Of a stretch of 24,545 bases of DNA, positions 1 to 16,960 are shown piece by piece; position 1 is the first letter of the stretch, and each line of letters opens with the position of its first letter. The position numbers were made by a program, and so were the translations under genes. The notes below the pieces were generated by a model. It was not told the origin of the DNA. It ran no database searches and saw nothing but the letters and a program-made list of their open reading frames with translations. Origin of the DNA: a virus; IMG/VR virus record IMGVR_UViG_3300034166_001928, positions 1 to 24,545 of that record; one strand, 5' to 3'.

Positions 1-372
1 GTCGAGCTGGGCGAAGAGGTCGACGTACGCGGCGCGCGACTCGGTCACCTGGTACTCGCCCGCGTTCAGCAGGAGCACGTGCCGCCCCGGCAGCAGGCAC
101 CCCTCGGTGTCGTCCTTCGTGTTGCCGGCGTGAATGCGAATGCCCGAGAAGCCGGGCACGTCCATCACGAGGGGCATGTCGACGCCGAAGCGCGGCGAGT
201 GGGTGATTTCCACTCGGTACTTGCCCTCGGGAATGGCCGTCTGCCGCGGCACCTTCACGCCGGGCGCACGGGCGGTGTCCTCAAGCATGAAGCAGGCGTG
301 CACGCCGTCAATGCGCAGCACGCTCACGGTGCATCGGGGCGTCAGCACCACGCGAATGAGCTCGAGCTTCAC
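1..372 (-). CDS. DUF5675-like protein, 3' end beyond window
   Basis: The reading frame opens with GTG at 372, inside a GTGA overlap with the stop of the preceding gene, and stays open to base 1, so 124 residues are visible and the C-terminus is missing. The visible part has the pattern of the DUF5675 family: FMLED near residue 47, an AIPEGKYRVEI strand, and the signature GIRIHAGN followed by DDTEGC. The paired histidine and cysteine recall the H...GC arrangement of YkuD-type L,D-transpeptidases, so a peptidoglycan-related role is possible but is my inference. It follows two small membrane proteins, a position often taken by lysis genes. No other endolysin is visible in the window. The family match is fairly secure; the function is not. 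Confidence 0.8.
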   Translation of the reverse strand, partial: MKLELIRVVLTPRCTVSVLRIDGVHACFMLEDTARAPGVKVPRQTAIPEGKYRVEITHSPRFGVDMPLVMDVPGFSGIRIHAGNTKDDTEGCLLPGRHVLLLNAGEYQVTESRAAYVDLFAQLD

Positions 373-3412: not shown

Positions 3413-3604
3413 TCAGCCAGCCCTGTTCGGGACCGGCAGCACCGTGACGGGCTTCACCAGCTGCTGCGGCTCGTTCTGCTGGGCCAGCACGACGCCCTTC
3501 GCGAGCTCGAGCATGCCCAGCGCCAACACCTTGTCGGTGGGGCCGCTGAAGGTGAGCTGCCCATCGCGGGTAAACTCGATGGTGATGCGAATCGCCTGGC
3601 TCAT
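3413..3604 (-). CDS. 63-residue phage protein, unknown
   Basis: The ATG at 3604 forms an ATGA overlap with the stop of the preceding gene and has GGAAGGTGG just upstream, so it is translationally coupled. The product (MSQAIRITIEFTRDG at its start, then LGMLELAKGVVLAQQ) has a short beta segment and one helix. It is not recognised. Its conserved position between two typical tail-appendage small proteins suggests a chaperone or accessory role, but nothing in the sequence proves this. Confidence 0.6.
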   Translation of the reverse strand: MSQAIRITIEFTRDGQLTFSGPTDKVLALGMLELAKGVVLAQQNEPQQLVKPVTVLPVPNRAG

Positions 3605-3996
3605 GCGCCACCTTCCGGGAAGCTCCAGCTGTTGATTTGCACGGGCCCGCCCGCCACCAGCGCCAGCGTGTTGATGTTCATGTCGGCGCCCGACACGCCC
3701 ACCGTGCCCTGAAGCACCGCAACGCCCGCCGAGGTGGTGACGCGCCAGTAGCCCGCAGTGCCCGTGGCGCTCGCGTTGACGTTGGCTGGCAGGGTCGGCG
3801 ACAGCGTTCCGCCAGATGCCGCAGGAGCGAATGGGCTGCCCAGCGTGTGCTCGGCCAGCAACGTCCCAGACTGCGCAGTCGCCACGTCGGCAGGCAGCGA
3901 GCCGGTGAGAATGCGCAGACGCCCGCCGCTCCCCACTGCCGCCGTCACTGCGTCTGCACGCGCGTTGCGAGCTGCCATGGAGAGCTGCAGGGCCAT
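3601..3996 (-). CDS. MALQLS-type small phage tail-appendage protein
   Basis: This 131-residue protein begins MALQLSMAARNARADAV and has a repeating Gly/Ala/Thr beta region ending in INSWSFPEGGA. The N-terminal helix plus RILTGSLPADVA and GTAGYWRV motifs are a pattern I recognise from small uncharacterised proteins in tail fibre clusters of many prophages. It is the first gene of the leftmost unit. The ATG at 3996 lacks a Shine-Dalgarno sequence; the 20-base repeated element ends 20 bases upstream instead. The divergent lipoprotein gene begins 92 bases away. Function is unknown; a structural role is inferred from context. Confidence 0.7.
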   Translation of the reverse strand: MALQLSMAARNARADAVTAAVGSGGRLRILTGSLPADVATAQSGTLLAEHTLGSPFAPAASGGTLSPTLPANVNASATGTAGYWRVTTSAGVAVLQGTVGVSGADMNINTLALVAGGPVQINSWSFPEGGA

Positions 3997-4087
3997 GCCG
4001 GGTTTGTCCGCCGCAGGTGGACCGCCGAGCTACACCGCTGAACGGGTGTCGCGTGGCGCGTCGGCTCGTAGGCGGTAGGGTTGGAGC
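3997..4087. other. Divergent intergenic region between appendage unit and lipoprotein moron
   Basis: This 91-base gap separates the minus-strand appendage unit from the plus-strand lipoprotein gene and is one of the longest non-coding stretches in the window. It must hold the promoter of the lipoprotein gene and probably the start of the leftward unit. It contains copy 2 of the repeated element. No clear -35/-10 pair of the standard sigma-70 type stands out on the plus strand. Confidence 0.5.
4017..4036 (-). promoter_or_regulatory. Repeated 20-base element, copy 2
   Basis: Read on the minus strand this is GGTGTAGCTCGGCGGTCCAC, identical over all 20 bases to copy 3. It ends exactly 20 bases before the ATG at 3996. 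The GGTG at one end can pair with the CACC that begins at the other end and runs one base into the spacer, giving a small stem. The downstream gene has no recognisable Shine-Dalgarno sequence. Confidence 0.6.
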
Positions 4088-4489
4088 ATGACTGGTCGAG
4101 TTCTTGTCCTGGCGGTGGTGATGGCTGGGTGCGCCCCCATCGACGGCTCCACGTGCGAGGAGGAGGCAGCGACGCAGTGTGACGGGGCGCGCGTCGCGTA
4201 CTGCGAGCGCGCCAGCCTGGGCGGCCTGAAGTGGAAGGCGTACGACTGTCCGAGCGGGTGCGATTCACTCAAGGCAAGGAAGTGTGACTGGAACGGGGTC
4301 GACGCCGGCGCCGCATGTCCGGCCAACCAGGCGTCGCAGGCGAACTGCCCGGGCGATGGCCGCCTCATGCTTTGTCTGTCGGCCGACGATGGCGGCGTGT
4401 GGGTCGACGCCCCGTGCGAGCGGTGCGTGGCCGGCGCACCAACGAGCTCCGTTCTGAACTGCAACGGCATTTCGTGCGCCTGCCGTTAG
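4088..4489 (+). CDS. Cysteine-rich secreted lipoprotein (moron)
   Basis: This is the only convincing plus-strand gene. AGGG lies 7 bases before the ATG. Residues 1-14 form a short lipoprotein signal ending in VMAG before Cys15, which would be lipidated. The mature protein has 14 further cysteines in two similar halves: Cys23, 31, 39, 54, 58, 66 and then Cys77, 87, 96, 110, 113, 125, with extra cysteines at 130 and 132. An even number fits disulfide bonding outside the cytoplasm. Short Cys-rich lipoproteins with Trp in each repeat are common in myxobacteria. Its reverse orientation within the late genes marks it as a moron, perhaps expressed from the prophage to alter the host envelope (superinfection exclusion or another surface trait); that role is inference. 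Confidence 0.8.
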   Translation: MTGRVLVLAVVMAGCAPIDGSTCEEEAATQCDGARVAYCERASLGGLKWKAYDCPSGCDSLKARKCDWNGVDAGAACPANQASQANCPGDGRLMLCLSADDGGVWVDAPCERCVAGAPTSSVLNCNGISCACR

Positions 4490-5007
4490 GTTGAAGGTCG
4501 CTCGCCCCACACAGCAAGAGAGAAGTTGAAGTCCGTGCGTGCCCACGAGGGAGCCCGCTCCCACGTCGAGACGATGACCAGCGACCCGCTCGGCCCGCTA
4601 GAGATAAAGCACGTCGCCTTCCGCTCGACACCCGTAGTTGCTCGAGGCGTGGCCACACAGAAGAAGTTCTGCGAGGTCGCGAGGTAGATTCGCCACTGCC
4701 CCGTGCCGATGCGCTGCGGTGCGATGGTTCCGAAGATGCCGCCAGAGAGGCTGGCCCCCAGCGAAGGCGTGATGCCCGACGTACTGTCGATGAAGAAGTC
4801 AGCGGTCGCGCGCGCGATGAGGATGTCGTTGTGCTTGCCCGGCACGTTCCTTTGCCAGAACGGCGAGCCTGCAGTCGCCGACGTCGGCACGAGGTGTTTC
4901 AATTCGTAGATGTCGAGCACCGCCTCGCCGTTGTCGTTCGCCTGGTTGAGCGACTGGAAGCCTACCGCATGGTCCCGCACCGTCTTCGGAAGCTTGACGT
5001 ACGTCAT
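4486..5007 (-). CDS. Tail fibre-like protein, shorter paralogue
   Basis: The start chosen is ATG at 5007, in an ATGA overlap with the stop of the longer fibre gene upstream; the frame extends further but only as a shadow of that gene. The 173-residue product begins MTYVKLPKTVRDHAVGFQSL and resembles both ends of its upstream neighbour: LNQANDNGEAVLDIYELKH near its N-terminus, and WARTDFNFSLAVWG near its C-terminus, matching WARADRTFSAAMFG in the neighbour. It therefore looks like a shortened copy lacking the middle part. A virion fibre or receptor-binding role is inferred from position after the tail-tip genes. Its TAA stop overlaps the TAG stop of the convergent lipoprotein gene. Confidence 0.7.
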   Translation of the reverse strand: MTYVKLPKTVRDHAVGFQSLNQANDNGEAVLDIYELKHLVPTSATAGSPFWQRNVPGKHNDILIARATADFFIDSTSGITPSLGASLSGGIFGTIAPQRIGTGQWRIYLATSQNFFCVATPRATTGVERKATCFISSGPSGSLVIVSTWERAPSWARTDFNFSLAVWGERPST

Positions 5008-5993
5008 GCCGTCACCCCGAACATTGCCGCCGAGAAGGTGCGGTCGGCCCGCGCCCAGTTCGTCCCGTCGAAGGCGTAGATGTAGAAGCGAAACTTTGAC
5101 GTCCCCGCGCCCGTGCCGAAGCCCGCGCCGTTGATGACGCACAGCTCGTTCGGCGTCGCCGGCTGCACCTCGGGGAAGCAGGCCATCGTGTTGAGCGAGG
5201 TGAAGTTGCCGTCCATGAAGACGTCGATGACGCCGAGCGACACGCGAGACACCGAAGCAACGCCGTCAGCCCACACGCGCGTGTACGCCGTGGGCGCGTA
5301 CGTGAAGAAGCCCACCGCCTTGGCGATGCGGTTGACGTTGTGCGCGCCGGCCGCCGTGTGCTCGAGCAGCGAGGCCTTGCGGATGATGCCCTGATTCTGA
5401 GCAAGGGCGCTCCAGTCGGTGGCCGCTTCGGTGAGCCAGTCGCGGCGGCGCTTCAGCGTGCGGCTGAGCAGCAACGACGTACTGTGGGGCTGAGCCGGCG
5501 CATGTACCGCGACGTCGACGTTTCGATTGACCGCCGCCCATGCGTCGCCCGACCCCAGGGCACTGGTGAGCCACTCGACGCGGAGCCGCACAGAGGTCGC
5601 CGACACCGTCTCTGTGGTGATGAGGTGGGGCTTTGCCTCGATGCCCGAGCCGCAGACGTTCGCGAGCACACTCGAGAGAAATTTGCCGCTCGCGTCCGTA
5701 GGGATGAACCCCGAGGTGACATTGAGCGTGTACTCGCCGGTGGCTGGGCGAGCGAGCGTGCCGCCGCCGTACGCCGTGTCGAAGAGGTGACCCGTGGGCG
5801 GGGAGCCGTCGACCATGTGCCCCAGCACCCAAGGGATTTCCTGCGCGTTGTGCTCCCCGTCGCTGAAGTGCTCCGCGCGTGCGAGCTCGTCGATGGCCTC
5901 CGCGTTCACCTGCAGCTGATTGACGGTGCCCGGCCCGAGCGGCTCCTGTCGGGCAAAGGCATTTAGCGGTGTGTAGCGGAACGGAGGCGGCAT
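5004..5993 (-). CDS. Tail fibre-like protein
   Basis: This 329-residue protein starts with ATG at 5993 behind CAGGGTGA, directly after the large tail-tip gene. The N-terminal region (PLNAFARQEPLGPGTVNQL, then NAEAIDELARAEHFSDGEHNA) is a pattern seen at the attachment end of phage fibres and baseplate-associated proteins. The middle holds an Arg-rich helix (LLSRTLKRRRDWLTEA). The C-terminal part is beta-rich and ends KFRFYIYAFDGTNWARADRTF. It is paralogous to the next gene. Binding of a host receptor is the likely role, inferred from gene order. Confidence 0.7.
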   Translation of the reverse strand: MPPPFRYTPLNAFARQEPLGPGTVNQLQVNAEAIDELARAEHFSDGEHNAQEIPWVLGHMVDGSPPTGHLFDTAYGGGTLARPATGEYTLNVTSGFIPTDASGKFLSSVLANVCGSGIEAKPHLITTETVSATSVRLRVEWLTSALGSGDAWAAVNRNVDVAVHAPAQPHSTSLLLSRTLKRRRDWLTEAATDWSALAQNQGIIRKASLLEHTAAGAHNVNRIAKAVGFFTYAPTAYTRVWADGVASVSRVSLGVIDVFMDGNFTSLNTMACFPEVQPATPNELCVINGAGFGTGAGTSKFRFYIYAFDGTNWARADRTFSAAMFGVTA

Positions 5994-5997
5994 GGTG

Positions 5998-8430
5998 TCA
6001 CCCTGAGATGAGGCGGTTGCCCGTTGCGGTGTCTGAGGTGGTGCCGCTGGCGTTCGTCACCTTGCCGTACATGGCGCCGCCGCTCGGGTAGTTGCTCGGA
6101 TCGCTGATGGCCGTCGGGTACGTTGTCGCCCCGCGCTGAATCGACCAGTCGGCGTTGATCACTATGCCCGTGGGGATGGCTGCAGCGGCCCCCGTCTCGT
6201 CCACAACCGTCACTTGGAACGTGGCTGAAATGGTGACGATTCGAAACGCTGCGTTGCGCGTGAAAACGTCGTCGGCCTGCGTCGAATCACGGAGGATGAG
6301 GATGTCGCCGACCTGCACTCCCATCGTCGTGAGGTTGATGGTGCCTGTGAACTCCACGAGGTCAGAGCCGTCGGTGCTGGCGCTCCCGGTCAGCACGCCC
6401 TTGCTGCGCACGAGCAGCGTCTCGTCGTCGAGCAGGTACTGGCGCTCGTCGCTCGCGTCCTGCCGCCAGATGGCCTCAATCTCCACGGAATCGTCGCCGC
6501 TGGCGTAGGTGAGCCCCTCAATCTGAAACCACGTCTTTGCGTACGGGCCGCCAATGCTGGGCCCACGGGTCCACGTGAAGGCGAAGTAGCTGCCGAGATC
6601 GAGCAGCATCACGCGGATGTTCGTCTTGAAGCGGATTCGAGGGCGGGCCTCGGTGTCGATGCTGGTGCGCCAACCAAAGGGCGAGCGGGCCTGTTGCCGG
6701 TAGGGGCGCCAGCCCTGCTCGTACTTCGCTTCGATGATGCGGTCGGCGAGCGCGATGCCCGCCCCCGCCGTCAGGGTCGCAAAGTCGAAGGGCCCCGCGT
6801 AGGCAGGCATCGTCATGCCTTCGGCTTCGTAGATTTTCCCGCCTGTGAAGAAGATGCGGTTGGCCGGGGAGAAGCGCTCGCCATCGCCCGGGATGTCGTC
6901 GACGACATCGCGCACCTGCGTCTCCGGGATGTCAATGAGGGCCGCCGCCTGCGTCGCGATGGTGAAGTCACGCACGTCGCTCGAGAAGGCAAAGAGGCCA
7001 TCGTTGTTGATAAAGACATCGATGTCGCTCGACTGCGCCAGCGCGGTGATGACGGCTCGAAGCGAGGGAGGGCGGTACCACGAGTCGGGGCGGCGGTCGG
7101 TCCACGGCGCGACGACGCCGGCGCACGCAGCGTTCGGACACCCCCTGCGAATGCGCCCGCGCGAGACGGCGTCCACCGTCACGGCCGCATCGCTGTAGTG
7201 CGTGGCGAGATCCGTCAGAACGTCGGTCGCGTGCTGCACTGCGCTGACGGTGTGCGTGCGCGCGGAGAGCGGGAAGCCCTGAACGTACCATGCCGTGACG
7301 CCAGCGGCGGCGTTGCCGTACTGGATGTTGGATGCGTTGTTCGATGCGTAGTCGCGCATCTTGTAGACGGCGGTCGGCGGGTAGCCGCCCTGCCATTCGT
7401 TGGCGAAGTCGGTCGACTCGTAGGTGATGGCGCCGTTGGTGCCCGTGGCCGGGTTCTGACGGTCGACCGCCTTGCCACCAAACAGCCAATACAAGCCGCT
7501 CGTCATGTTGCCGACATTCCCGAGGTCGGCTCGCACAACGAGATAGATGATTTTGAACGTCTTGCTGCCGACCGTGATTGAGGGGCTGCGCTCGACGCTC
7601 CACACAGTCGTGGGCGCGCCACCCCCGCTGGTGACGGTCCTGGGGACGTCGTAGAGGCCTCCGGGGACAGCAGGAGTGCCAGCCCAGTTGATCCGCAGCG
7701 CGGTGATTTCTGTGCTCGAGGCCGCCCCGGCGTCTGTCGTGCAGCAGATGGGGACGATGACCTTGTTCTGGTACGCCGCGTCCACCGTCCCGAGCGGGAT
7801 GAGATGTGGGAAGGCGCGCACCCAGTCCTCACCGAAGGCGAGTTGAACCGGCGTGGACTCTTCTCCGTCGAGCACATCGGGGCGGCCGTAGCCATTCTTC
7901 AGCGGGTTGTTCGCCGTCGTGCCGACTGCCGCCCAGTTGTCGAGCGTGGGCAGTGACGCGGCCTCGGCCAGCCGCCCCATGATGTCGTCGCCGAGTTGCA
8001 GCGTCACCTTGGAGTCGTCGCGGCGCGGCGGCTCCGAGAGCATGAAGGTCCCGAGAGAGCGCGTGTCGGCCGTGCCCACGGGGTTGCTGACTTCGTAGAG
8101 CGCGAGGTACAGCTTGATGCGCACCTTCATTGCGGTGGCGATGTTCGGCCGCCCACACAGCCAATCGAGCCCGCCGTCGGCGTTGTCGAGGACGAGCTCG
8201 CACGTCGCAGACGTGGCCACGCGACTCTGCCCGAAGCCGCGCCGCACCGGAGACAACGAGAGCACGCGACTCGCGCGGCCCTGGGCGTTGGGCCTCGAGG
8301 TCGGGCTGCCCCCGTAAAGCCCTGCCTTGTCGGCGTACCGCGCCTCCATCGTGACGAAGTTGTCGAGCGACATGTCGACGAGAATGGCGCGACCGATGCC
8401 TTCGGTGGCGAGGAGGGAGGCAAGACTCAC
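5998..8430 (-). CDS. Large tail-tip/baseplate hub protein candidate
   Basis: The GTG start at 8430 lies in a GTGA overlap with the preceding distal tail gene. At 810 residues it is the largest product in the window. The N-terminal part (ILVDMSLDNFVTMEARYADK, later VATSATCELVLDNADGGLDWL, then TFMLSEPPRRDDSKVTLQLGD) resembles hub-type domains that precede phage tail-tip proteins. The centre includes CPNAAC and a region around PSLRAVITALAQSSDIDVFINNDG that recalls hub proteins which load and process a tip domain. Residues about 675-810 are Gly/Thr-rich and end GKVTNASGTTSDTATGN. Gene order (tape measure, distal tail protein, this gene, fibres) supports a tail-tip hub or central fibre; a specific family is not certain. 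Confidence 0.75.
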   Translation of the reverse strand: MSLASLLATEGIGRAILVDMSLDNFVTMEARYADKAGLYGGSPTSRPNAQGRASRVLSLSPVRRGFGQSRVATSATCELVLDNADGGLDWLCGRPNIATAMKVRIKLYLALYEVSNPVGTADTRSLGTFMLSEPPRRDDSKVTLQLGDDIMGRLAEAASLPTLDNWAAVGTTANNPLKNGYGRPDVLDGEESTPVQLAFGEDWVRAFPHLIPLGTVDAAYQNKVIVPICCTTDAGAASSTEITALRINWAGTPAVPGGLYDVPRTVTSGGGAPTTVWSVERSPSITVGSKTFKIIYLVVRADLGNVGNMTSGLYWLFGGKAVDRQNPATGTNGAITYESTDFANEWQGGYPPTAVYKMRDYASNNASNIQYGNAAAGVTAWYVQGFPLSARTHTVSAVQHATDVLTDLATHYSDAAVTVDAVSRGRIRRGCPNAACAGVVAPWTDRRPDSWYRPPSLRAVITALAQSSDIDVFINNDGLFAFSSDVRDFTIATQAAALIDIPETQVRDVVDDIPGDGERFSPANRIFFTGGKIYEAEGMTMPAYAGPFDFATLTAGAGIALADRIIEAKYEQGWRPYRQQARSPFGWRTSIDTEARPRIRFKTNIRVMLLDLGSYFAFTWTRGPSIGGPYAKTWFQIEGLTYASGDDSVEIEAIWRQDASDERQYLLDDETLLVRSKGVLTGSASTDGSDLVEFTGTINLTTMGVQVGDILILRDSTQADDVFTRNAAFRIVTISATFQVTVVDETGAAAAIPTGIVINADWSIQRGATTYPTAISDPSNYPSGGAMYGKVTNASGTTSDTATGNRLISG

Positions 8431-9254
8431 GAGCCCACCTCACGACCCAGCCCCACGAGCGTCAGGCTGTCGATGCCAAAGAGGCGGAAGTCATTCTCCG
8501 TCCATCCGAGCGTGTCCTGAAACTTGCCCCACAGGCACTGCAGCGCTGCAGAGGTGGCCGCTGTTGCGGTCGACTCAATGAAGTCGATGAAGAGGACGTT
8601 GATGGCGCCGCCTCGCGTGGCGCGCCACATCGCCATCACCTCGTTGCGCTGCGACGTCCCCTGTAGGTCGACGAAGGGCAACGACACGGTCCGAATGGGG
8701 CCACCTACGAAGGTGCTGCGCACGTTGCCGGTGCGCGACTCGTTGCGATTCTGCACGTAGCGCTCGGACTCTCCACTGCCGTACACGGGGTCTCGAGAGA
8801 GGACGCCGATGGTGGTGAGCGCCAGCAGCTCGCCCAGCGTGACGGTGAGCGTCCCGGTATGCGTGAACGTCAGCCGCCAGTAGCGACGCGAGACGGCGGG
8901 GAACTGCAGCACCGTGTCCTTCTGGTACGGCTCGTCGACGTTGAGGGTGGACGCCGCCTTCGCCGTTCCCGTGCCCGTCGTGAAGCCCGCGTCGCTCGCG
9001 TAGGTGACGGCCACCAAGCCGGCCGCCGCAGCCAGGTTGTGGTTGAGCAACGCAAAGCCCGAGAGACTCACCGCCGCGCCGAGGTCGATGGTGAGCGTCT
9101 GCCCGCTGGCCTGCGGCGTCGCGCTGCCGGCCACGAGTTCATCCATCACGCCGTCGTTGAGGCGCGCGCGGTTGTCCGTGAAGCCGCTGCTCCACGTGAA
9201 CGAAGTGGCAGCGAGGCCAGCGAGCGCCTGCGTTACGGAGAATCCGCGGCTCAT
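8427..9254 (-). CDS. Distal tail protein with discoidin-like domain
   Basis: This 275-residue protein starts with ATG at 9254 in an ATGA overlap with the tape measure stop. Residues about 20-150 have the pattern of an F5/8 type C (discoidin) sandwich: a FTDNRARLNDGVMDELVAGS opening, LTIDLGAAVSLSGFALLNHN, and a closing YWRLTFTHTGT strand followed by LGELLAL. The C-terminal half has VGGPIRTVSLPFVDL and an IDFIESTATAA segment. The place just after the tape measure and before the hub candidate is that of the distal tail protein in siphoviruses. A carbohydrate-binding module there could help adsorption. The domain is called from pattern, not from a search. Confidence 0.75.
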   Translation of the reverse strand: MSRGFSVTQALAGLAATSFTWSSGFTDNRARLNDGVMDELVAGSATPQASGQTLTIDLGAAVSLSGFALLNHNLAAAAGLVAVTYASDAGFTTGTGTAKAASTLNVDEPYQKDTVLQFPAVSRRYWRLTFTHTGTLTVTLGELLALTTIGVLSRDPVYGSGESERYVQNRNESRTGNVRSTFVGGPIRTVSLPFVDLQGTSQRNEVMAMWRATRGGAINVLFIDFIESTATAATSAALQCLWGKFQDTLGWTENDFRLFGIDSLTLVGLGREVGS

Positions 9255-11152
9255 CCCGGCACCATGCCCATCAGGCCGACGTTGCCGCGCCCGGCCCGAA
9301 TCGCGCGACGCAAGCCCAACCCGAAGTCAGACTCCACCGACTCGGCCACCGACTTCGCGTTGAGCGCCGAGACGTTGACGGTGAGGCTGGGCCCGCCCTT
9401 CGCCGCCGAGTCGACGCCGCCCTTGCCGCCCATGCGCTGCACCTCGTTCCTCGAGAGGACGCGCTCGCCCGACTGAAGAATGGCCGCGTGCTCGTCGGCG
9501 CCAATCCACGAGCCGGAGTGGTACCGGGGCAGCGTCGCCTCGTCGCCCACCCAGCCGCCCGAGTGGAACTTCTTGGGCATGTTGCCGCGGCTCCGGTTGG
9601 AGCGGCTCATCTCGCCGAAGCCCGCCTGAATGCCCATCGAGCCGAGGTTGCCGATGGCCGCGCCGAGAGCGGGCATGCCGTACGCCGTGCCGATGGCTGA
9701 GGCTGCGATGCTGAAGACGGCCGAGAGGATGGAGCCGACGAATTGCGCCGCGTCGAACTCGCCGCCGTCGGCCAGCTTCGCGAGTTGGTCGCTCAGTGCG
9801 TTGACGAAGGCCGCGCCGATTTGGTCACCGGTGGCCTTCCACTGGCGCTCCTTCGCTTCGATGCTCTGTCGGGCCTCTTGCGTGGCGCGCTTCTCGGCCT
9901 CCTCCTCGGCCTTGAGCATGTCCTCGGTTGCCTTGCGCTCCATCGCGGACTGCTGCTTCCACGAGTCGAGAGCCGCCTTCTCCTGGGCGTCGTGGTACTT
10001 CTGCCGCTCGGCGAGCGCCTGCGCGTACATCTGCCGGTCCGCCTCGAGCGCCTCCTCGTTCTGCTGCTGGATGAGCACCGACTGCTCGGCCATGCCGTCC
10101 TTCACGGCCGCCGTCTCCTCCTGCACGTACTCCTTCGTCAGCGTGAGGCTCTTCTTCGCGGCCTCCGCCGCCGCGTCGTGCATGCCCTTGTTCGTGGTGC
10201 CGGTGACGGAGGGAAGCGTCAGCTCCTTACTCTTGCCGACGAGGGCATCGAGCTTCGCCTGCGCCCGGTCCATGTCCTCGGTGAACATCTTGATGATGGT
10301 GTCGGACTGGCCCTCCATCATCGCTTCGTTCAGCTCGTACTGCGCATCAGTGAGCGCCTGCTTCGCGTTGGCGAGGTCGAGCGCACGAATCTTCTCGTCG
10401 AGCTCACCACGCGAGCGCTTCTGCGTGATGAACTCGTCCATCTCGCGCAGCGCCGAGGTGAGCGCCCCGACGGCCCCCGCCTCCTGCATGAAGCCCGCGA
10501 TGGACTCGCCGATGCTCTTCTGCAGGTCGTCGAAGGCGAGCCCCGCGCCACGCAGCGAGCCGGTGAGCGACTCCGCGTCAGCGGTAGCCGCCCCGCCGAA
10601 CTTCGCGTTGAGCGCTGCCACCGCCGCGGCGAGGTCCTTCCCCTTGTCGCCCGTCTCCGTGAAGTGAACACCCAGCTTCGCGAGACCCACGCCGCCCGAC
10701 TCGACGTTGCGAATGAGGTCCTGCGTCGCGCCGACGGCGTCCTGCCCGGTGGCCGCCGCGTAGTTGAGGATGGCCTCTTCGACTTCCTTCGTCGCCGCGC
10801 CGACACCGCCCCACTGCGTGAGCAGAATCTCCGACTGCTTGATGATGTCGTCGTCGACCGCGTACAGCCGCGAGAGGGCTTCCGCCTGGTCGTCCAGCAC
10901 GTCGGCGTAGTCGCCGGCCGCTCGAGCGAGCTGCCGCTGCACGCGCTCCGACTCGGCGTAGGCCTTCACCGCATCGACGCCGAAGCGCACCACCATCTCA
11001 GCGGCCGCCTTGGCGACATTCGCCAGCTCCTGCCACTTCACCACCGACTTGCCGACGTCGTCGCCGAGCTCGCCGACAGCGCCCCCCGCCTCGTTGAAGG
11101 CACCGACGGCGCCGCTTGCATCGCCGTTGAGTCGAATCTCGATGTCAGACAC
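9251..11152 (-). CDS. Tape measure protein
   Basis: The start is GTG at 11152, six bases after AGGAGG and overlapping the end of the chaperone extension. The 633-residue protein begins MSDIEIRLNGDASGAVGAFN, a usual opening for tape measures. A long charged coiled coil covers about residues 335-450. A hydrophobic Gly/Ala-rich stretch follows at about 480-525. The C-terminus has HSGSWIGADEHAAILQSGE and VLSRNEVQRMGG, a signature of many siphovirus tape measures. The protein sets tail length during tube assembly and passes into the host envelope at injection. At roughly 0.15 nm per residue the tail would be about 95 nm. Order (tube, chaperones, tape measure) is classical. Confidence 0.92.
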   Translation of the reverse strand: MSDIEIRLNGDASGAVGAFNEAGGAVGELGDDVGKSVVKWQELANVAKAAAEMVVRFGVDAVKAYAESERVQRQLARAAGDYADVLDDQAEALSRLYAVDDDIIKQSEILLTQWGGVGAATKEVEEAILNYAAATGQDAVGATQDLIRNVESGGVGLAKLGVHFTETGDKGKDLAAAVAALNAKFGGAATADAESLTGSLRGAGLAFDDLQKSIGESIAGFMQEAGAVGALTSALREMDEFITQKRSRGELDEKIRALDLANAKQALTDAQYELNEAMMEGQSDTIIKMFTEDMDRAQAKLDALVGKSKELTLPSVTGTTNKGMHDAAAEAAKKSLTLTKEYVQEETAAVKDGMAEQSVLIQQQNEEALEADRQMYAQALAERQKYHDAQEKAALDSWKQQSAMERKATEDMLKAEEEAEKRATQEARQSIEAKERQWKATGDQIGAAFVNALSDQLAKLADGGEFDAAQFVGSILSAVFSIAASAIGTAYGMPALGAAIGNLGSMGIQAGFGEMSRSNRSRGNMPKKFHSGGWVGDEATLPRYHSGSWIGADEHAAILQSGERVLSRNEVQRMGGKGGVDSAAKGGPSLTVNVSALNAKSVAESVESDFGLGLRRAIRAGRGNVGLMGMVPG

Positions 11153-13136: not shown

Positions 13137-14516
13137 TCATTCGGGCCGCTGGAAGACGCGGACGTTGATGGTGAGTCGGGCGGTGTCGAACAGCACGCCA
13201 GGCACTTCGCTCAGCGCGAGCGGGTCCCCGGAGATGACGGTGTCGGTGAGGCTGGCCAGCTGAATGTCACCGGCTCGGCCGAGGTAGCTGCCTTCGGTGG
13301 TGAGCAGCAGCTCGCGCACCGCACGCACGCAGGAGGAAATCATCTCGCGGCTTCGGTGCGGCGGGGCCGCAGCACTGAAGGGGCGCCAGATGTCGGTGGT
13401 GATGGCGACGTTGAATGTGTCGCGGCGCAGGCCCGGGTGTGTCGGCCGCGTGGTGCGGTTGCCGAGCAGCACCCAGAAGCCTTGGCCCATGTCGGGCGCA
13501 GTGAGGGGGCGCCCGTCGACGACGCCACGCCACGAGGGCGAGACGAGGGCGCCGGCCTCGACGTGCTCCCCGCCCTCAGCCCAGCCCAGCGCCGCGTTGC
13601 CACCCGTGGGACCGAGGTCGCGAGCCACCAGCGCCACCGAGGGCGCACCCACGGCAGGCGCGAGCGTGCTGGTGAGCTGCACGCGCCCGGCGAAGTCGAC
13701 CGACGCGGTGAGGTTGGGCACCGACGCCGCGTTGATGTCGTTGGCGATGGTGTTGGCTGACACCGCGCCGCCGCTGGTGAGCGTCACCTCGACGGGCGTG
13801 GCACCCTGCGACACCGACGAGAGCCGCAGCTTCGCGCCGCTGGGCACCACGAAGGGGCCGGCGAGGGCCGACTTGAGCACCGCGGGGCGCAGCGCGTTCA
13901 GCTGGGCCACCTTGGCCGGCAGGTAGCGCAGCAGGTACTCGCGCACGGCGGTGATGGCCAGCGCGTCAGGCTGCAGCCCGGGCGAGGCGCTGATGACGGT
14001 GCCGCCGCCACCCGAGACGAGCGGCTCCGTGTCGTAGGACCAGAAGGGCTGCGCGCTGCCCGTGGGCCCGAGAATGACGCCGACCGCCCCCGCCGCGAGG
14101 TCGCCCGCTGCCGGCGTGAAGGCGAAGAGGCTGGTCGAGCCGCCCGGCACGGGCGTCACGGTGAGGCTGGTGCCGCTGTACCCGGCCACCGTCGGCGCAG
14201 CGCCCGCCCACAGCGTGCCGTCGGGGTTGGTCACCACCACAGCGTCGAACTGGTTGCTGCCGTCGGGCAGGTACACGGGCACGGCCCAGTACCGGGGGAG
14301 GTTGCCCGCGCCGAAATCGACGAGCACCACCGTGCCCGCCAGTTCGTCTGCGTCGCTCGCGTTGATGCGCCACACGCCGGGCGCAGAGGCCACAGGCGTC
14401 ACGCTGGGCGCGGTGCGAACGTTGCCCGCCCGGTCCCATGCAGACACACCGGGGCTGCCGCTGGTGAGCGGTGCGCCGGTCGAGTCGACAACAGGGACGG
14501 TGCGGGCGTCAGCCAT
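13137..14516 (-). CDS. Tail completion/terminator region protein, multi-domain
   Basis: This 459-residue protein starts with ATG at 14516. The N-terminal 170 residues are beta-rich and Ig-like in character (PVVDSTGAPLTSGSPGVSAW, later YWAVPVYLPDGSNQF). A second region at about 210-330 (KLRLSSVSQGATPVEVTL) resembles a further sandwich. The last 110 residues carry FNVAITTDIWRPFSAAAPP and a helix IISCVRAVREL-like segment followed by LFDTARLTINVRVF, which recalls tail terminator proteins. Its place before the tail tube fits a tail completion protein with N-terminal additions. I cannot name a family with certainty. Confidence 0.55.
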   Translation of the reverse strand: MADARTVPVVDSTGAPLTSGSPGVSAWDRAGNVRTAPSVTPVASAPGVWRINASDADELAGTVVLVDFGAGNLPRYWAVPVYLPDGSNQFDAVVVTNPDGTLWAGAAPTVAGYSGTSLTVTPVPGGSTSLFAFTPAAGDLAAGAVGVILGPTGSAQPFWSYDTEPLVSGGGGTVISASPGLQPDALAITAVREYLLRYLPAKVAQLNALRPAVLKSALAGPFVVPSGAKLRLSSVSQGATPVEVTLTSGGAVSANTIANDINAASVPNLTASVDFAGRVQLTSTLAPAVGAPSVALVARDLGPTGGNAALGWAEGGEHVEAGALVSPSWRGVVDGRPLTAPDMGQGFWVLLGNRTTRPTHPGLRRDTFNVAITTDIWRPFSAAAPPHRSREMISSCVRAVRELLLTTEGSYLGRAGDIQLASLTDTVISGDPLALSEVPGVLFDTARLTINVRVFQRPE

Positions 14517-14519
14517 GGC

Positions 14520-14756
14520 TCAGGGGTTCGCGGCGAGCCACGCCTGAAAGCGGGTGACGACCAACGCATCGCGCTGGTCGGTGAAGGTCTGCGTCTGAAC
14601 GGTGGTGACGGTGGTGTCGGCCGTCGCCTTGTCGTGCAGAGCGGCGAGCTCGTGCAGCGTGTTGATGGCCTCGGCCAAATTCTCGCGGAAAGTGGCGGTG
14701 CCCTCGCTGTAGAGCGCGACCGCGAGGGTGGTGGCCTGCTGTTTCGGAGTGGGCAT
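14520..14756 (-). CDS. 78-residue helical phage protein, unknown
   Basis: The ATG at 14756 has AGGA upstream, and the gene ends 3 bases before the next start. The product is helical and Ala/Thr-rich (MPTPKQQATTLAVALYSEG, then FRENLAEAINTLHELAALHD). It ends RFQAWLAANP. It has no membrane segment. Size and position, immediately downstream of a fibre-like gene, fit either a fibre chaperone or a small tail completion factor, but no family is recognised. Confidence 0.6.
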   Translation of the reverse strand: MPTPKQQATTLAVALYSEGTATFRENLAEAINTLHELAALHDKATADTTVTTVQTQTFTDQRDALVVTRFQAWLAANP

Positions 14757-14763
14757 GTGTTCC

Positions 14764-15918
14764 TCAGAGGATGTTGGAGACCTGCCAGCTGAACGGGAGG
14801 GCTGCGGTGGCGTTGGCCGTGCCGCTCACGGTGAATGAGCCGGCAGCGGGGACCGCAATCAACTCTTTGCAGGTCGCATCGCGCGCGTGCTGCGTGATGA
14901 TCACACGCGACGCTGCGGTGACGAGCGAGTTCGTGATGACGACCGACGAAGCACCGATGGCGATCGCGCTCTTCCCGGTCGGCTTGTTGATAGTCGCGGC
15001 ACCGGGCGTGCCGGTTGAGTCGGTGCCCCACTGGTCGAGCGCGCCGAGTCGTGTCTTGAGGTAGACGGTTGCGCCCACGGAAAACTCGTAGCCGAACTCG
15101 CTCACCGCGTAGCCGTCGCTGAATCGGAGCCCGAAGTAGGTCGAGGTATTGTTGCCGAAGCGCAGCGACCCGGTGCCCGGCGCAGCCTCGATCTGCCACG
15201 ACACGCCCGGCGTACCGTTGTCCCACTTGATAGCGTTCGATGAAGCGCCCCAGAACGTCAAGCCTCCCTTCTGAAAGAAGGCGCGCTCCACTTCGGTACC
15301 GCCTACACCGGTGCGCACTGAGAGCAGCTTCGCGCCCGCGTTGACGGTGCCATCGGCAACCGACGTGCCGACCTTGGTCGCAACGTCAGAAGCGCCAGCG
15401 CCCGTCTGCCCGAACAACTGCACGCCGACAGCGTTTGCTGCCTTGAAAACACCTGCATCACTCGTGAACTGACCCGAGCACCCCGCCGCGCCCGTGCCGG
15501 GGAAAAGTCCGAGATATGCGGCCGCACCGTTCCAGATGCCCGCCATACCGTCGCCTGTGCGGTACTGGAGTTTGACTCCGCCGCCGTCGCCATTGAACTC
15601 GAACGCCTGCGTGCTCGTCATGGCCGGGCCATTCTTGTTGACCCAGAATTTCTCTGTTTCCGATCCGCCAAGACCAGTGCGCACAGTCAGCAGTTTTGCG
15701 GTCGCGTTGGTTGATGCTTCTGAAGTGCTGGTGCCGACCTTCACGACGACGTCGCTCGCGCCCGTGCCGTTCGTGTTGAACAGGCTCGCGACCTGAATGC
15801 CCGCGCTGGCGATGATGGTGGAGAGGAACGTCTTCACGCCCTGCACTTGCTGCGCGATGGTGTTCAGGAACCCGCGCAACGTGCCGGAGGCGTCGGGCGG
15901 GGCAGAGGGAGTGCTCAT
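14764..15918 (-). CDS. Fibre-like protein with internal duplication
   Basis: This 384-residue protein starts with ATG at 15918 in an ATGA overlap with the gpG-like gene. Residues 1-45 are helical and may attach or trimerise. Two copies of a segment of about 50 residues follow (about 47-97 and 169-219), each with the order GASDV, KVGTS, AKLL, VRTG, GG, E. The C-terminus has a SAIAIGASSVVITNSL strand and then a closing FSWQVSNIL. Segments with GASDV...AKLLSVRTG are found in tail fibre and capsid fibre proteins of several phages. Its place between head completion and tail genes, away from the other fibres, is unusual. Base composition looks somewhat less GC-rich than in neighbouring genes. Confidence 0.6.
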   Translation of the reverse strand: MSTPSAPPDASGTLRGFLNTIAQQVQGVKTFLSTIIASAGIQVASLFNTNGTGASDVVVKVGTSTSEASTNATAKLLTVRTGLGGSETEKFWVNKNGPAMTSTQAFEFNGDGGGVKLQYRTGDGMAGIWNGAAAYLGLFPGTGAAGCSGQFTSDAGVFKAANAVGVQLFGQTGAGASDVATKVGTSVADGTVNAGAKLLSVRTGVGGTEVERAFFQKGGLTFWGASSNAIKWDNGTPGVSWQIEAAPGTGSLRFGNNTSTYFGLRFSDGYAVSEFGYEFSVGATVYLKTRLGALDQWGTDSTGTPGAATINKPTGKSAIAIGASSVVITNSLVTAASRVIITQHARDATCKELIAVPAAGSFTVSGTANATAALPFSWQVSNIL

Positions 15919-16484
15919 CGTCGACCTCTGCCGGTGAGGGTGGGCGCGTCATCGTCGTTGCCCTTCACCTCGAGCACGCCGTTGCTGCCCTCGCGCACGG
16001 CCTCGCGCACGCCTGCAGCGATGGCCGACTGCAGGCCCCGCTCGAAGTCGTCGGCGAAGTCGAACACCGCGCGCGCCGGCATCTTCGCCGTGCCCGTCTG
16101 GTGGTAGCTGGCCCACGGCACGCCGACGGTGCCGAACGTCAGCTCGTTGCCCGTCACGTCACGCCGCGCGTTGGGCCCCGACTGCGTGAGGCCCGCCCGG
16201 AGTGCGCCACTGCGCTCGAGCAAGGGCTTGCCCGGGTAGTTGGCCTGCTTCCACTTCGCGTAGGCCACCGAGAGCGGCGCCCAGCTGCCTGAGCTGCCAC
16301 GCCCGCGCGCGTCGAACTGCTTCGCCACCGACGACTCCATCAGCGGAATCAGCTTCGGCAGCACGTGCTTGCCGACGTTCGCCAGCTCTGCGCCCGCTCG
16401 CTCGACAGCGGCGGAGAAGCGACGCAGCCCGGCATCAGGCACACCGCCCACCTGGTACTCGACGCTGACGACGATGGCGCTCAC
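15915..16484 (-). CDS. Phage virion morphogenesis protein, Mu gpG-like
   Basis: The GTG at 16484 overlaps the stop of the preceding gene. The 189-residue protein opens with a beta strand (SAIVVSVEYQVGG) and has the family pattern RGSSGSWAPLSVAYAKWK, then PLLERSGALRAGL and a VPWASYHQTGTAKMPARAVF segment. This is the pattern of Mu gpG and related neck proteins (Pfam virion morphogenesis family), which join head and tail. The C-terminal 25 residues are acidic then basic. Location at the end of the head genes agrees. Confidence 0.88.
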   Translation of the reverse strand: MSAIVVSVEYQVGGVPDAGLRRFSAAVERAGAELANVGKHVLPKLIPLMESSVAKQFDARGRGSSGSWAPLSVAYAKWKQANYPGKPLLERSGALRAGLTQSGPNARRDVTGNELTFGTVGVPWASYHQTGTAKMPARAVFDFADDFERGLQSAIAAGVREAVREGSNGVLEVKGNDDDAPTLTGRGRR

Positions 16485-16960
16485 AGCTCGTCCTTTCGAC
16501 GCAGAACGGGGATGGCGTCGGACGCGTCCTCGTCGGAGCCGACGTCAATCAGCAGCTCGGAGATGTGGTCGGTCGGCCCGTCGGGCTCACTCGCTCCCAC
16601 CGTGGCCCCCTCCCCGAGCCAGTCGGCGTTCGACTCGTCCACCCCTTCGAACCACTCGCTCACTTCGGCGCGCCAGGCTTTGGCCACCTCGGGGTCAACG
16701 CCCGTCATGTCGCGGGCGATGCGCAGCGCCACCATCATGCGCAGCTGCTGGCGGCAGCTGACGAAGGCCTCGGTGTTGGCGTCGTCCTCGACGGTGGTGT
16801 TCGCCGCGCGAAGGGCGGCGCCGAGACGACCGGCCGCTTCGGCGATGGCCTCTCCGATGGCCGCTTCCGACGGACGCGACGACGCGGTCCACGCATCGGC
16901 GTTGGGGAAGTGGTGCGAGCGGACGGACTCAGCCGTCACGCCGAAGAGTTGAAGTGCCAT
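16481..16960 (-). CDS. Head-tail connector-like protein
   Basis: This 159-residue protein starts with ATG at 16960. It is mostly helical: SEAAIGEAIAEAAGRLGAAL, then QLRMMVALRIARDMTG and VAKAWRAEVSEWF. A helical, acidic protein between the capsid and the gpG-like gene occupies the position of gp36-type (DUF1320) connectors in Mu-like phages, but the N-terminal signature of that family is weak. The C-terminus is strongly acidic. The role as a head completion or adaptor protein is inferred from order. Confidence 0.6.
   Translation of the reverse strand: MALQLFGVTAESVRSHHFPNADAWTASSRPSEAAIGEAIAEAAGRLGAALRAANTTVEDDANTEAFVSCRQQLRMMVALRIARDMTGVDPEVAKAWRAEVSEWFEGVDESNADWLGEGATVGASEPDGPTDHISELLIDVGSDEDASDAIPVLRRKDEL

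What the first reader, a model, noticed from the sequence alone, without database searches (positions are those of the whole stretch)
4088..4489. Reverse-strand cysteine-rich lipoprotein moron in the tail module
A plus-strand gene for a secreted lipoprotein with 14 cysteines beyond the lipidated one, arranged as two similar repeats, sits among leftward fibre genes. Such a gene is not needed for the virion. Its own orientation suggests expression from the prophage. It may change the host surface, for example to block superinfection, or serve a host trait. I know of no described function for this arrangement.
Basis: partly seen in the sequence, partly recalled or inferred. Interest (0 to 1): 0.75.

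Follow-up and report, generated by a model that had tools for sequence, protein, structure and literature searches.

The report
Reversed phage lipoprotein gene among tail genes
A phage carries, backwards among its tail genes, a gene for a small lipid-anchored, cysteine-rich envelope protein with no detectable relatives; its position matches that of known phage proteins that block the host receptor after infection, so it is probably an unrecognised, unusually cysteine-rich protein of that kind.

Summary
Window 4088-4489 (+) encodes a 133-aa lipoprotein (lipobox VMAGC, Cys15) with 14 further cysteines, and it is a real gene. A codon model trained on the window's own genes calls it the only plus-strand coding stretch in 24.5 kb, and the competing minus ORF (4030-4470) scores as its shadow. 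It fills the only large hole (489 bp) in the late minus-strand operon that lacks a minus-strand gene. The 'two repeats' rest on cysteine/tryptophan spacing (1 in 100,000 shuffles, post hoc); residue similarity is weak. No homologue was found in any library or collection searched, and none of 15 loci sharing the neighbouring virion gene has such a gene. 'Prophage moron' is only partly supported: the parent record (38.5 kb, 99.98% identical) has a degenerate integrase-like gene and no HTH_3 repressor. Nor is the arrangement undescribed: T5 llp and Rtp45, receptor-blocking superinfection-exclusion lipoproteins, lie on the strand opposite their neighbouring receptor-binding or tail-fibre genes. 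Best reading: a non-homologous, cysteine-rich lipoprotein of that functional kind, expressed early or from a prophage. Function is inferred.

The parts
4088..4489 (+). Gene for the 133-aa cysteine-rich lipoprotein (signal peptide 1-14, lipidated Cys15, 14 more Cys)
   Evidence: translation; lipobox regex; codon model
4088..4129 (+). Signal peptide MTGRVLVLAVVMAG; Cys15 follows (4130-4132), residue +2 Ala
   Evidence: outer-membrane sorting from +2 Ala is inference from E. coli rules
4154..4285 (+). First six-cysteine module, Cys23-Cys66 (C-x7-C-x7-C-x14-C-x3-C-x7-C)
4316..4462 (+). Second six-cysteine module, Cys77-Cys125 (C-x9-C-x8-C-x13-C-x2-C-x11-C); Cys130 and Cys132 follow
3997..4087 (.). 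91-bp divergent region between the lipoprotein gene and the minus-strand virion gene; presumed site of the lipoprotein promoter
   Evidence: coordinates; no sigma-70 consensus found; role inferred
3601..3996 (-). Neighbouring virion structural protein gene (PHROG 3758, 131 aa), divergent from the lipoprotein gene
   Evidence: PHROG hit 7.5e-28; relatives
4486..5007 (-). Convergent tail-module gene (173 aa; the ORF-list start at 5142 is too early), stop codon overlapping the lipoprotein stop by 4 bp
4030..4470 (-). Antisense ORF of 146 aa, judged spurious (shadow of the lipoprotein gene)
   Evidence: codon model; no PHROG match
5004..11152 (-). Presumed fibre/host-recognition block (genes of 329, 810, 275 and 633 aa; the 275-aa one with a weak F5/8 type C-like match)
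   Evidence: fibre role is inference from position and domain

Best explanation
The gene is a phage accessory gene for a small, probably disulfide-rich lipoprotein. It is exported, lipidated at Cys15, and held in the envelope of a (presumably Gram-negative) host. It is probably transcribed from its own promoter in the 91-bp divergent gap, at a time when the late tail operon (which reads through it antisense) is off: early in infection and/or in a lysogen. Most likely it works like T5 Llp, T1 Cor or Rtp45. It binds the outer-membrane receptor that the phage's own neighbouring fibre proteins use, and so blocks adsorption or DNA entry of sibling phages and loss of progeny on debris. Shown here: the gene, the lipobox, the cysteines, the coding strand, its absence in related loci and the matching anatomy of T5 and Rtp. 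Inferred: disulfides, outer-membrane location, timing, receptor blocking.
For: Real plus-strand gene with lipobox. It is the sole reversed gene in 24.5 kb of minus-strand genes, inside the presumed fibre/host-recognition block. A relative phage (parent record of L005) and 14 other loci with the same virion gene lack it. T5: llp is on the opposite strand to oad (pb5), separated by 79 bp, with promoters annotated both ways. Rtp45 is opposite to the J-like fibre gene rtp43, with one gene between. Both block the receptor from the periplasmic side, and Llp has a disulfide (PMC9586334; PMC12685063). Llp proteins of T5 and BF23 have no homology yet the same function (PMC4728585), so lack of sequence similarity is no argument against. 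Genes antisense to lytic genes are characteristic of accessory loci (PMC7067206).
Against: No homologue of known function. It is nearly twice the size of Llp or Rtp45 and far richer in Cys, which suits a host-derived surface protein equally. Receptor and host are unknown. No promoter consensus. The gene in divergent position is PHROG 3758 (head/virion structural), not a proven receptor-binding protein.
Confidence: 0.45

Rival explanations
1. Lysogenic-conversion moron for a host trait: a lipoprotein captured from the host lineage, made in the lysogen, that alters surface properties (adhesion, contact exchange, stress) rather than phage entry.
For: Antisense-to-lytic position typical of morons. 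The parent record has a second plus-strand lipoprotein beside an integrase-like gene. The Cys/W module resembles modules I recall from myxobacterial secreted proteins (memory only, untested).
Confidence: 0.28
2. Recently acquired passenger with no function for the phage (drifting host gene).
For: No relatives; present in a single phage lineage.
Against: Intact frame with lipobox, regular cysteines and codon bias like phage genes. Only two records, identical in this gene, are known, so selection cannot be measured.
Confidence: 0.12
3. Lysis or virion component, such as an outer-membrane spanin or a virion-carried lipoprotein.
For: Outer spanins are lipoproteins and a weak spanin-like gene lies at 369-737 (phrog_13, E 0.009).
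Against: Wrong strand, about 3.3 kb from that gene, no PHROG match, overlapped by antisense late transcription.
Confidence: 0.07
4. Not a gene: the minus ORF 4030-4470 is the real operon member and the plus ORF is its antisense shadow.
For: The minus ORF fits tightly between its neighbours (15 bp and 33 bp); third positions are shared, so GC3 cannot decide.
Against: Codon model gives 43.9 nats for the minus ORF being the shadow; lipobox and regular Cys on the plus strand.
Confidence: 0.04

Closest known systems
T5 Llp (lytic conversion lipoprotein, gene llp next to oad)
   Same: Small lipoprotein with a disulfide, gene on the strand opposite the neighbouring host-recognition gene, short divergent gap (79 bp vs 91 bp here)
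   Different: 77 aa with 2 Cys after the lipidated one vs 133 aa with 14; no sequence similarity; function shown for Llp, not here
Rtp45 / SE(Oeko) and Cor of T1-like phages
   Same: Lipoprotein gene at the host-recognition locus, for Rtp45 opposite to the J-like fibre gene; Rtp45 blocks RBP binding from the periplasmic side
   Different: Rtp45 is 76 aa; no sequence similarity; receptor known for those
Ltp of Streptococcus thermophilus phage TP-J34
   Same: Prophage-encoded lipoprotein; superinfection exclusion; called a moron (PMC3952083)
   Different: Gram-positive host, gene in the lysogeny module, 142 aa, targets tape measure protein; no Pfam match of our protein
Myxococcus cysteine-rich repeat (TIGR02232 / DUF4215), as in TraA
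   Same: Cysteine-rich extracellular repeats typical of myxobacteria
   Different: No NCBIfam or Pfam match to our protein

Membership tests
Receptor-blocking superinfection-exclusion lipoproteins (functional class: Llp, Cor, Rtp45) | N-terminal signal peptide with lipobox | tested here: met
   VLVLAVVMAGC, PS51257 pattern, Arg in n-region
Receptor-blocking superinfection-exclusion lipoproteins (functional class: Llp, Cor, Rtp45) | Gene in the host-recognition/tail module, on the strand opposite the late genes | tested here: met
   Window gene map compared with T5 and Rtp records
Receptor-blocking superinfection-exclusion lipoproteins (functional class: Llp, Cor, Rtp45) | Early or lysogenic expression from its own promoter | tested here: inconclusive
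   91-bp divergent gap; no sigma-70 consensus; host sigma factors unknown
Receptor-blocking superinfection-exclusion lipoproteins (functional class: Llp, Cor, Rtp45) | Binds the phage receptor and lowers infection | not testable with these tools
   Needs host and bench assay
T5 Llp sequence family | Sequence homology to Llp | tested here: not met
   BLASTP 6-residue match only
Phage moron | Extra gene absent from related phages at the same site | tested here: met
   15 loci with the same virion gene carry no Cys-rich reversed gene beside it (output partly cut for L011-L012; Cys-rich ORF lists agree)
Phage moron | Temperate phage, expression from the prophage | tested here: inconclusive
   Integrase-like gene lacks Arg I and His II; no HTH_3; no RNA data
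Myxococcus cysteine-rich repeat (TIGR02232) | Match to the family model | tested here: not met
   No NCBIfam match up to E 10
Ltp / host cell surface-exposed lipoprotein | Match to its Pfam domain | tested here: not met
   No Pfam match

The most novel reading that the evidence does not exclude
A two-module, 14-cysteine disulfide-stabilised lipoprotein captured from a bacterial surface-protein lineage has become a new class of phage envelope protein that blocks entry, or reshapes the cell surface or contact-dependent exchange of a (possibly myxobacterial) host.
Probability: 0.15. Interest if true: 0.65.

Novelty: new variant of a known kind. Interest (0 to 1): 0.4.

Why it matters
Receptor-blocking phage lipoproteins are known mainly from E. 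coli phages; a related exclusion lipoprotein, Ltp, comes from streptococcal phages. If this protein does the same job it would extend the reversed-lipoprotein-in-tail-module anatomy to a GC-rich, unidentified host, and to a disulfide-rich protein unlike Llp, Cor or Rtp45. It would also support finding such genes by position and lipobox rather than by homology.

Tried and rejected
Homology searches of the protein: Pfam, PHROGs, NCBIfam, PDB, phage and plasmid tblastn, viral contigs (only its own parent record), genome contigs, about 600 genomes drawn from the phyla of two MAGs: no credible relative; the single 5.5e-4 hit has two stop codons inside. A DNA pattern for a CDG..C..W..C..GC module in viral contigs gave 4 hits, judged chance from their translations. 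A consensus of a myxobacterial-type module written from memory found nothing in plasmids, phages or viral contigs; those collections may hold few or no such genomes, so this says nothing about chromosomes. The minus ORF 4030-4470 was considered as the true gene and rejected. Spanin role rejected by strand and place. Sequence-level duplication of the repeats is not firmly supported.

Full report
Where it lies. The window is an IMG/VR record of 24,545 bases. It is contained at 99.98% identity in a longer record, IMGVR_UViG_3300042480_001415 (38,483 bases), whose ends repeat over 326 bp (99.4%), so the phage genome is probably near complete at about 38.2 kb. It is a tailed phage: terminase, portal, protease, scaffold, major head protein, neck, minor tail protein. 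It has no close relatives in the collections. The best relative, the parent record of L005, shares the terminase (46%), the virion protein at 3601-3996 (62%) and a few other genes.

The gene is real. Position 4088-4489 on the plus strand encodes MTGRVLVLAVVMAGC... with a lipobox and 14 more cysteines. In GC-rich DNA long spurious ORFs are common, and a minus ORF of 146 aa (4030-4470) would fit the leftward operon well. The two frames share third codon positions, so GC3 is no guide. A codon model trained on the window's own genes separates them: the minus ORF looks like a shadow frame by 43.9 nats, as much as the shadows of known genes of that size, and the plus ORF scores as sense. Over the whole window the plus segment 4106-4246 is the only plus-strand coding signal, and the gene fills the only large gap of the late operon (489 bp) with no minus-strand coding. 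The plus ORF's margin over its own antisense frame is modest (10.5 nats), probably because of its unusual composition.

The repeats. The first twelve cysteines after the lipidated one fall into two sets of six with similar spacing, and a tryptophan lies four residues before the fourth cysteine of each (W-x4-C). The combination occurred in 1 of 100,000 residue shuffles, though it was chosen after looking.

No relatives. No family library, solved structure, phage, plasmid, viral contig (apart from the parent record) or genome contig gave a homologue. In 15 loci that carry a relative of the neighbouring virion protein, no reversed cysteine-rich lipoprotein gene was seen beside it (the listing was cut for parts of L011 and L012).

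Is it a prophage gene? The parent record has an integrase-like gene on the same (plus) strand (PHROG 5.9e-10), but its alignment to integron integrase IntI4 shows GTGLH where the catalytic Arg I should be and G where His II should be, and no HTH_3 repressor was found. Temperate life is possible but not shown.

What it most likely does. The anatomy has known counterparts. In T5, llp (110429-110662, plus) stands opposite to oad, the receptor-binding protein gene (108427-110349, minus), separated by 79 bp with annotated promoters in both directions. In phage Rtp, rtp45 (minus) lies beside the J-like fibre gene (plus), with one gene between. Llp and Rtp45 bind the outer-membrane receptor from the periplasm and stop the receptor-binding protein from docking (PMC9586334; PMC12685063). 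Llp proteins of T5 and BF23 are unrelated in sequence yet do the same job for different receptors (PMC4728585). The BASEL paper describes the locus next to the J-like fibre hub as the site of receptor-binding proteins and exclusion factors in small coliphages (PMC11990801). Our gene matches in lipobox, strand, short divergent gap and place in the fibre block, but not in sequence, size or number of cysteines. I therefore propose a receptor-blocking, Llp-like function at 0.45, with a host-trait moron at 0.28. Such a gene needs no lysogeny: T5 expresses Llp early in a lytic infection (title of Decker et al. 1994, cited).

Verdict. A genuine, homologue-free lipoprotein gene in a known type of position: a new variant of a known kind, with the function inferred from position and topology only.

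Noticed in passing
L017:9989-10405 (+), parent record 29989-30405, outside the window: A second plus-strand lipoprotein gene (138 aa, MRTLVLVLAVVAVGC, several Cys, very similar signal peptide) lies upstream of the integrase-like gene; the codon scan supports part of it as coding and no homologue was found.
   Followed up: partly
L017:10985-12055 (+): Divergent tyrosine-recombinase-like protein with His at the Arg I position and Gly at the His II position, but Arg II, the later His and Tyr kept; possibly inactive or an unusual recombinase.
   Followed up: partly
window 3413-3604 (-): Small gene (63 aa) between the virion protein and the 96-aa gene, overlapping the virion gene by 4 bp; missed by an 80-aa ORF cut-off.
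   Followed up: no
window 8427-9254 (-): Fibre-block protein with a weak F5/8 type C (galactose-binding-like) match, below Pfam's cut-off; possible carbohydrate-binding tail protein.
   Followed up: no
L017:8041-9747 (-), 4319-5239 (-), 14316-15950 (+): C5 cytosine DNA methyltransferase of 568 aa, a second methyltransferase-like gene, and a RecT gene in the parent record.
   Followed up: no
L017:16064-16133 and 16490-16560 (+): ARAGORN reports tRNA-Ile and tRNA-Trp in the parent record; only the Trp one reaches Rfam's threshold.
   Followed up: no
window 127-147 and parent record ends: The parent record has a 326-bp near-identical end repeat (2 mismatches), suggesting a complete circular or terminally redundant genome; the window's five differences to it all lie in window bases 127-147.
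   Followed up: partly
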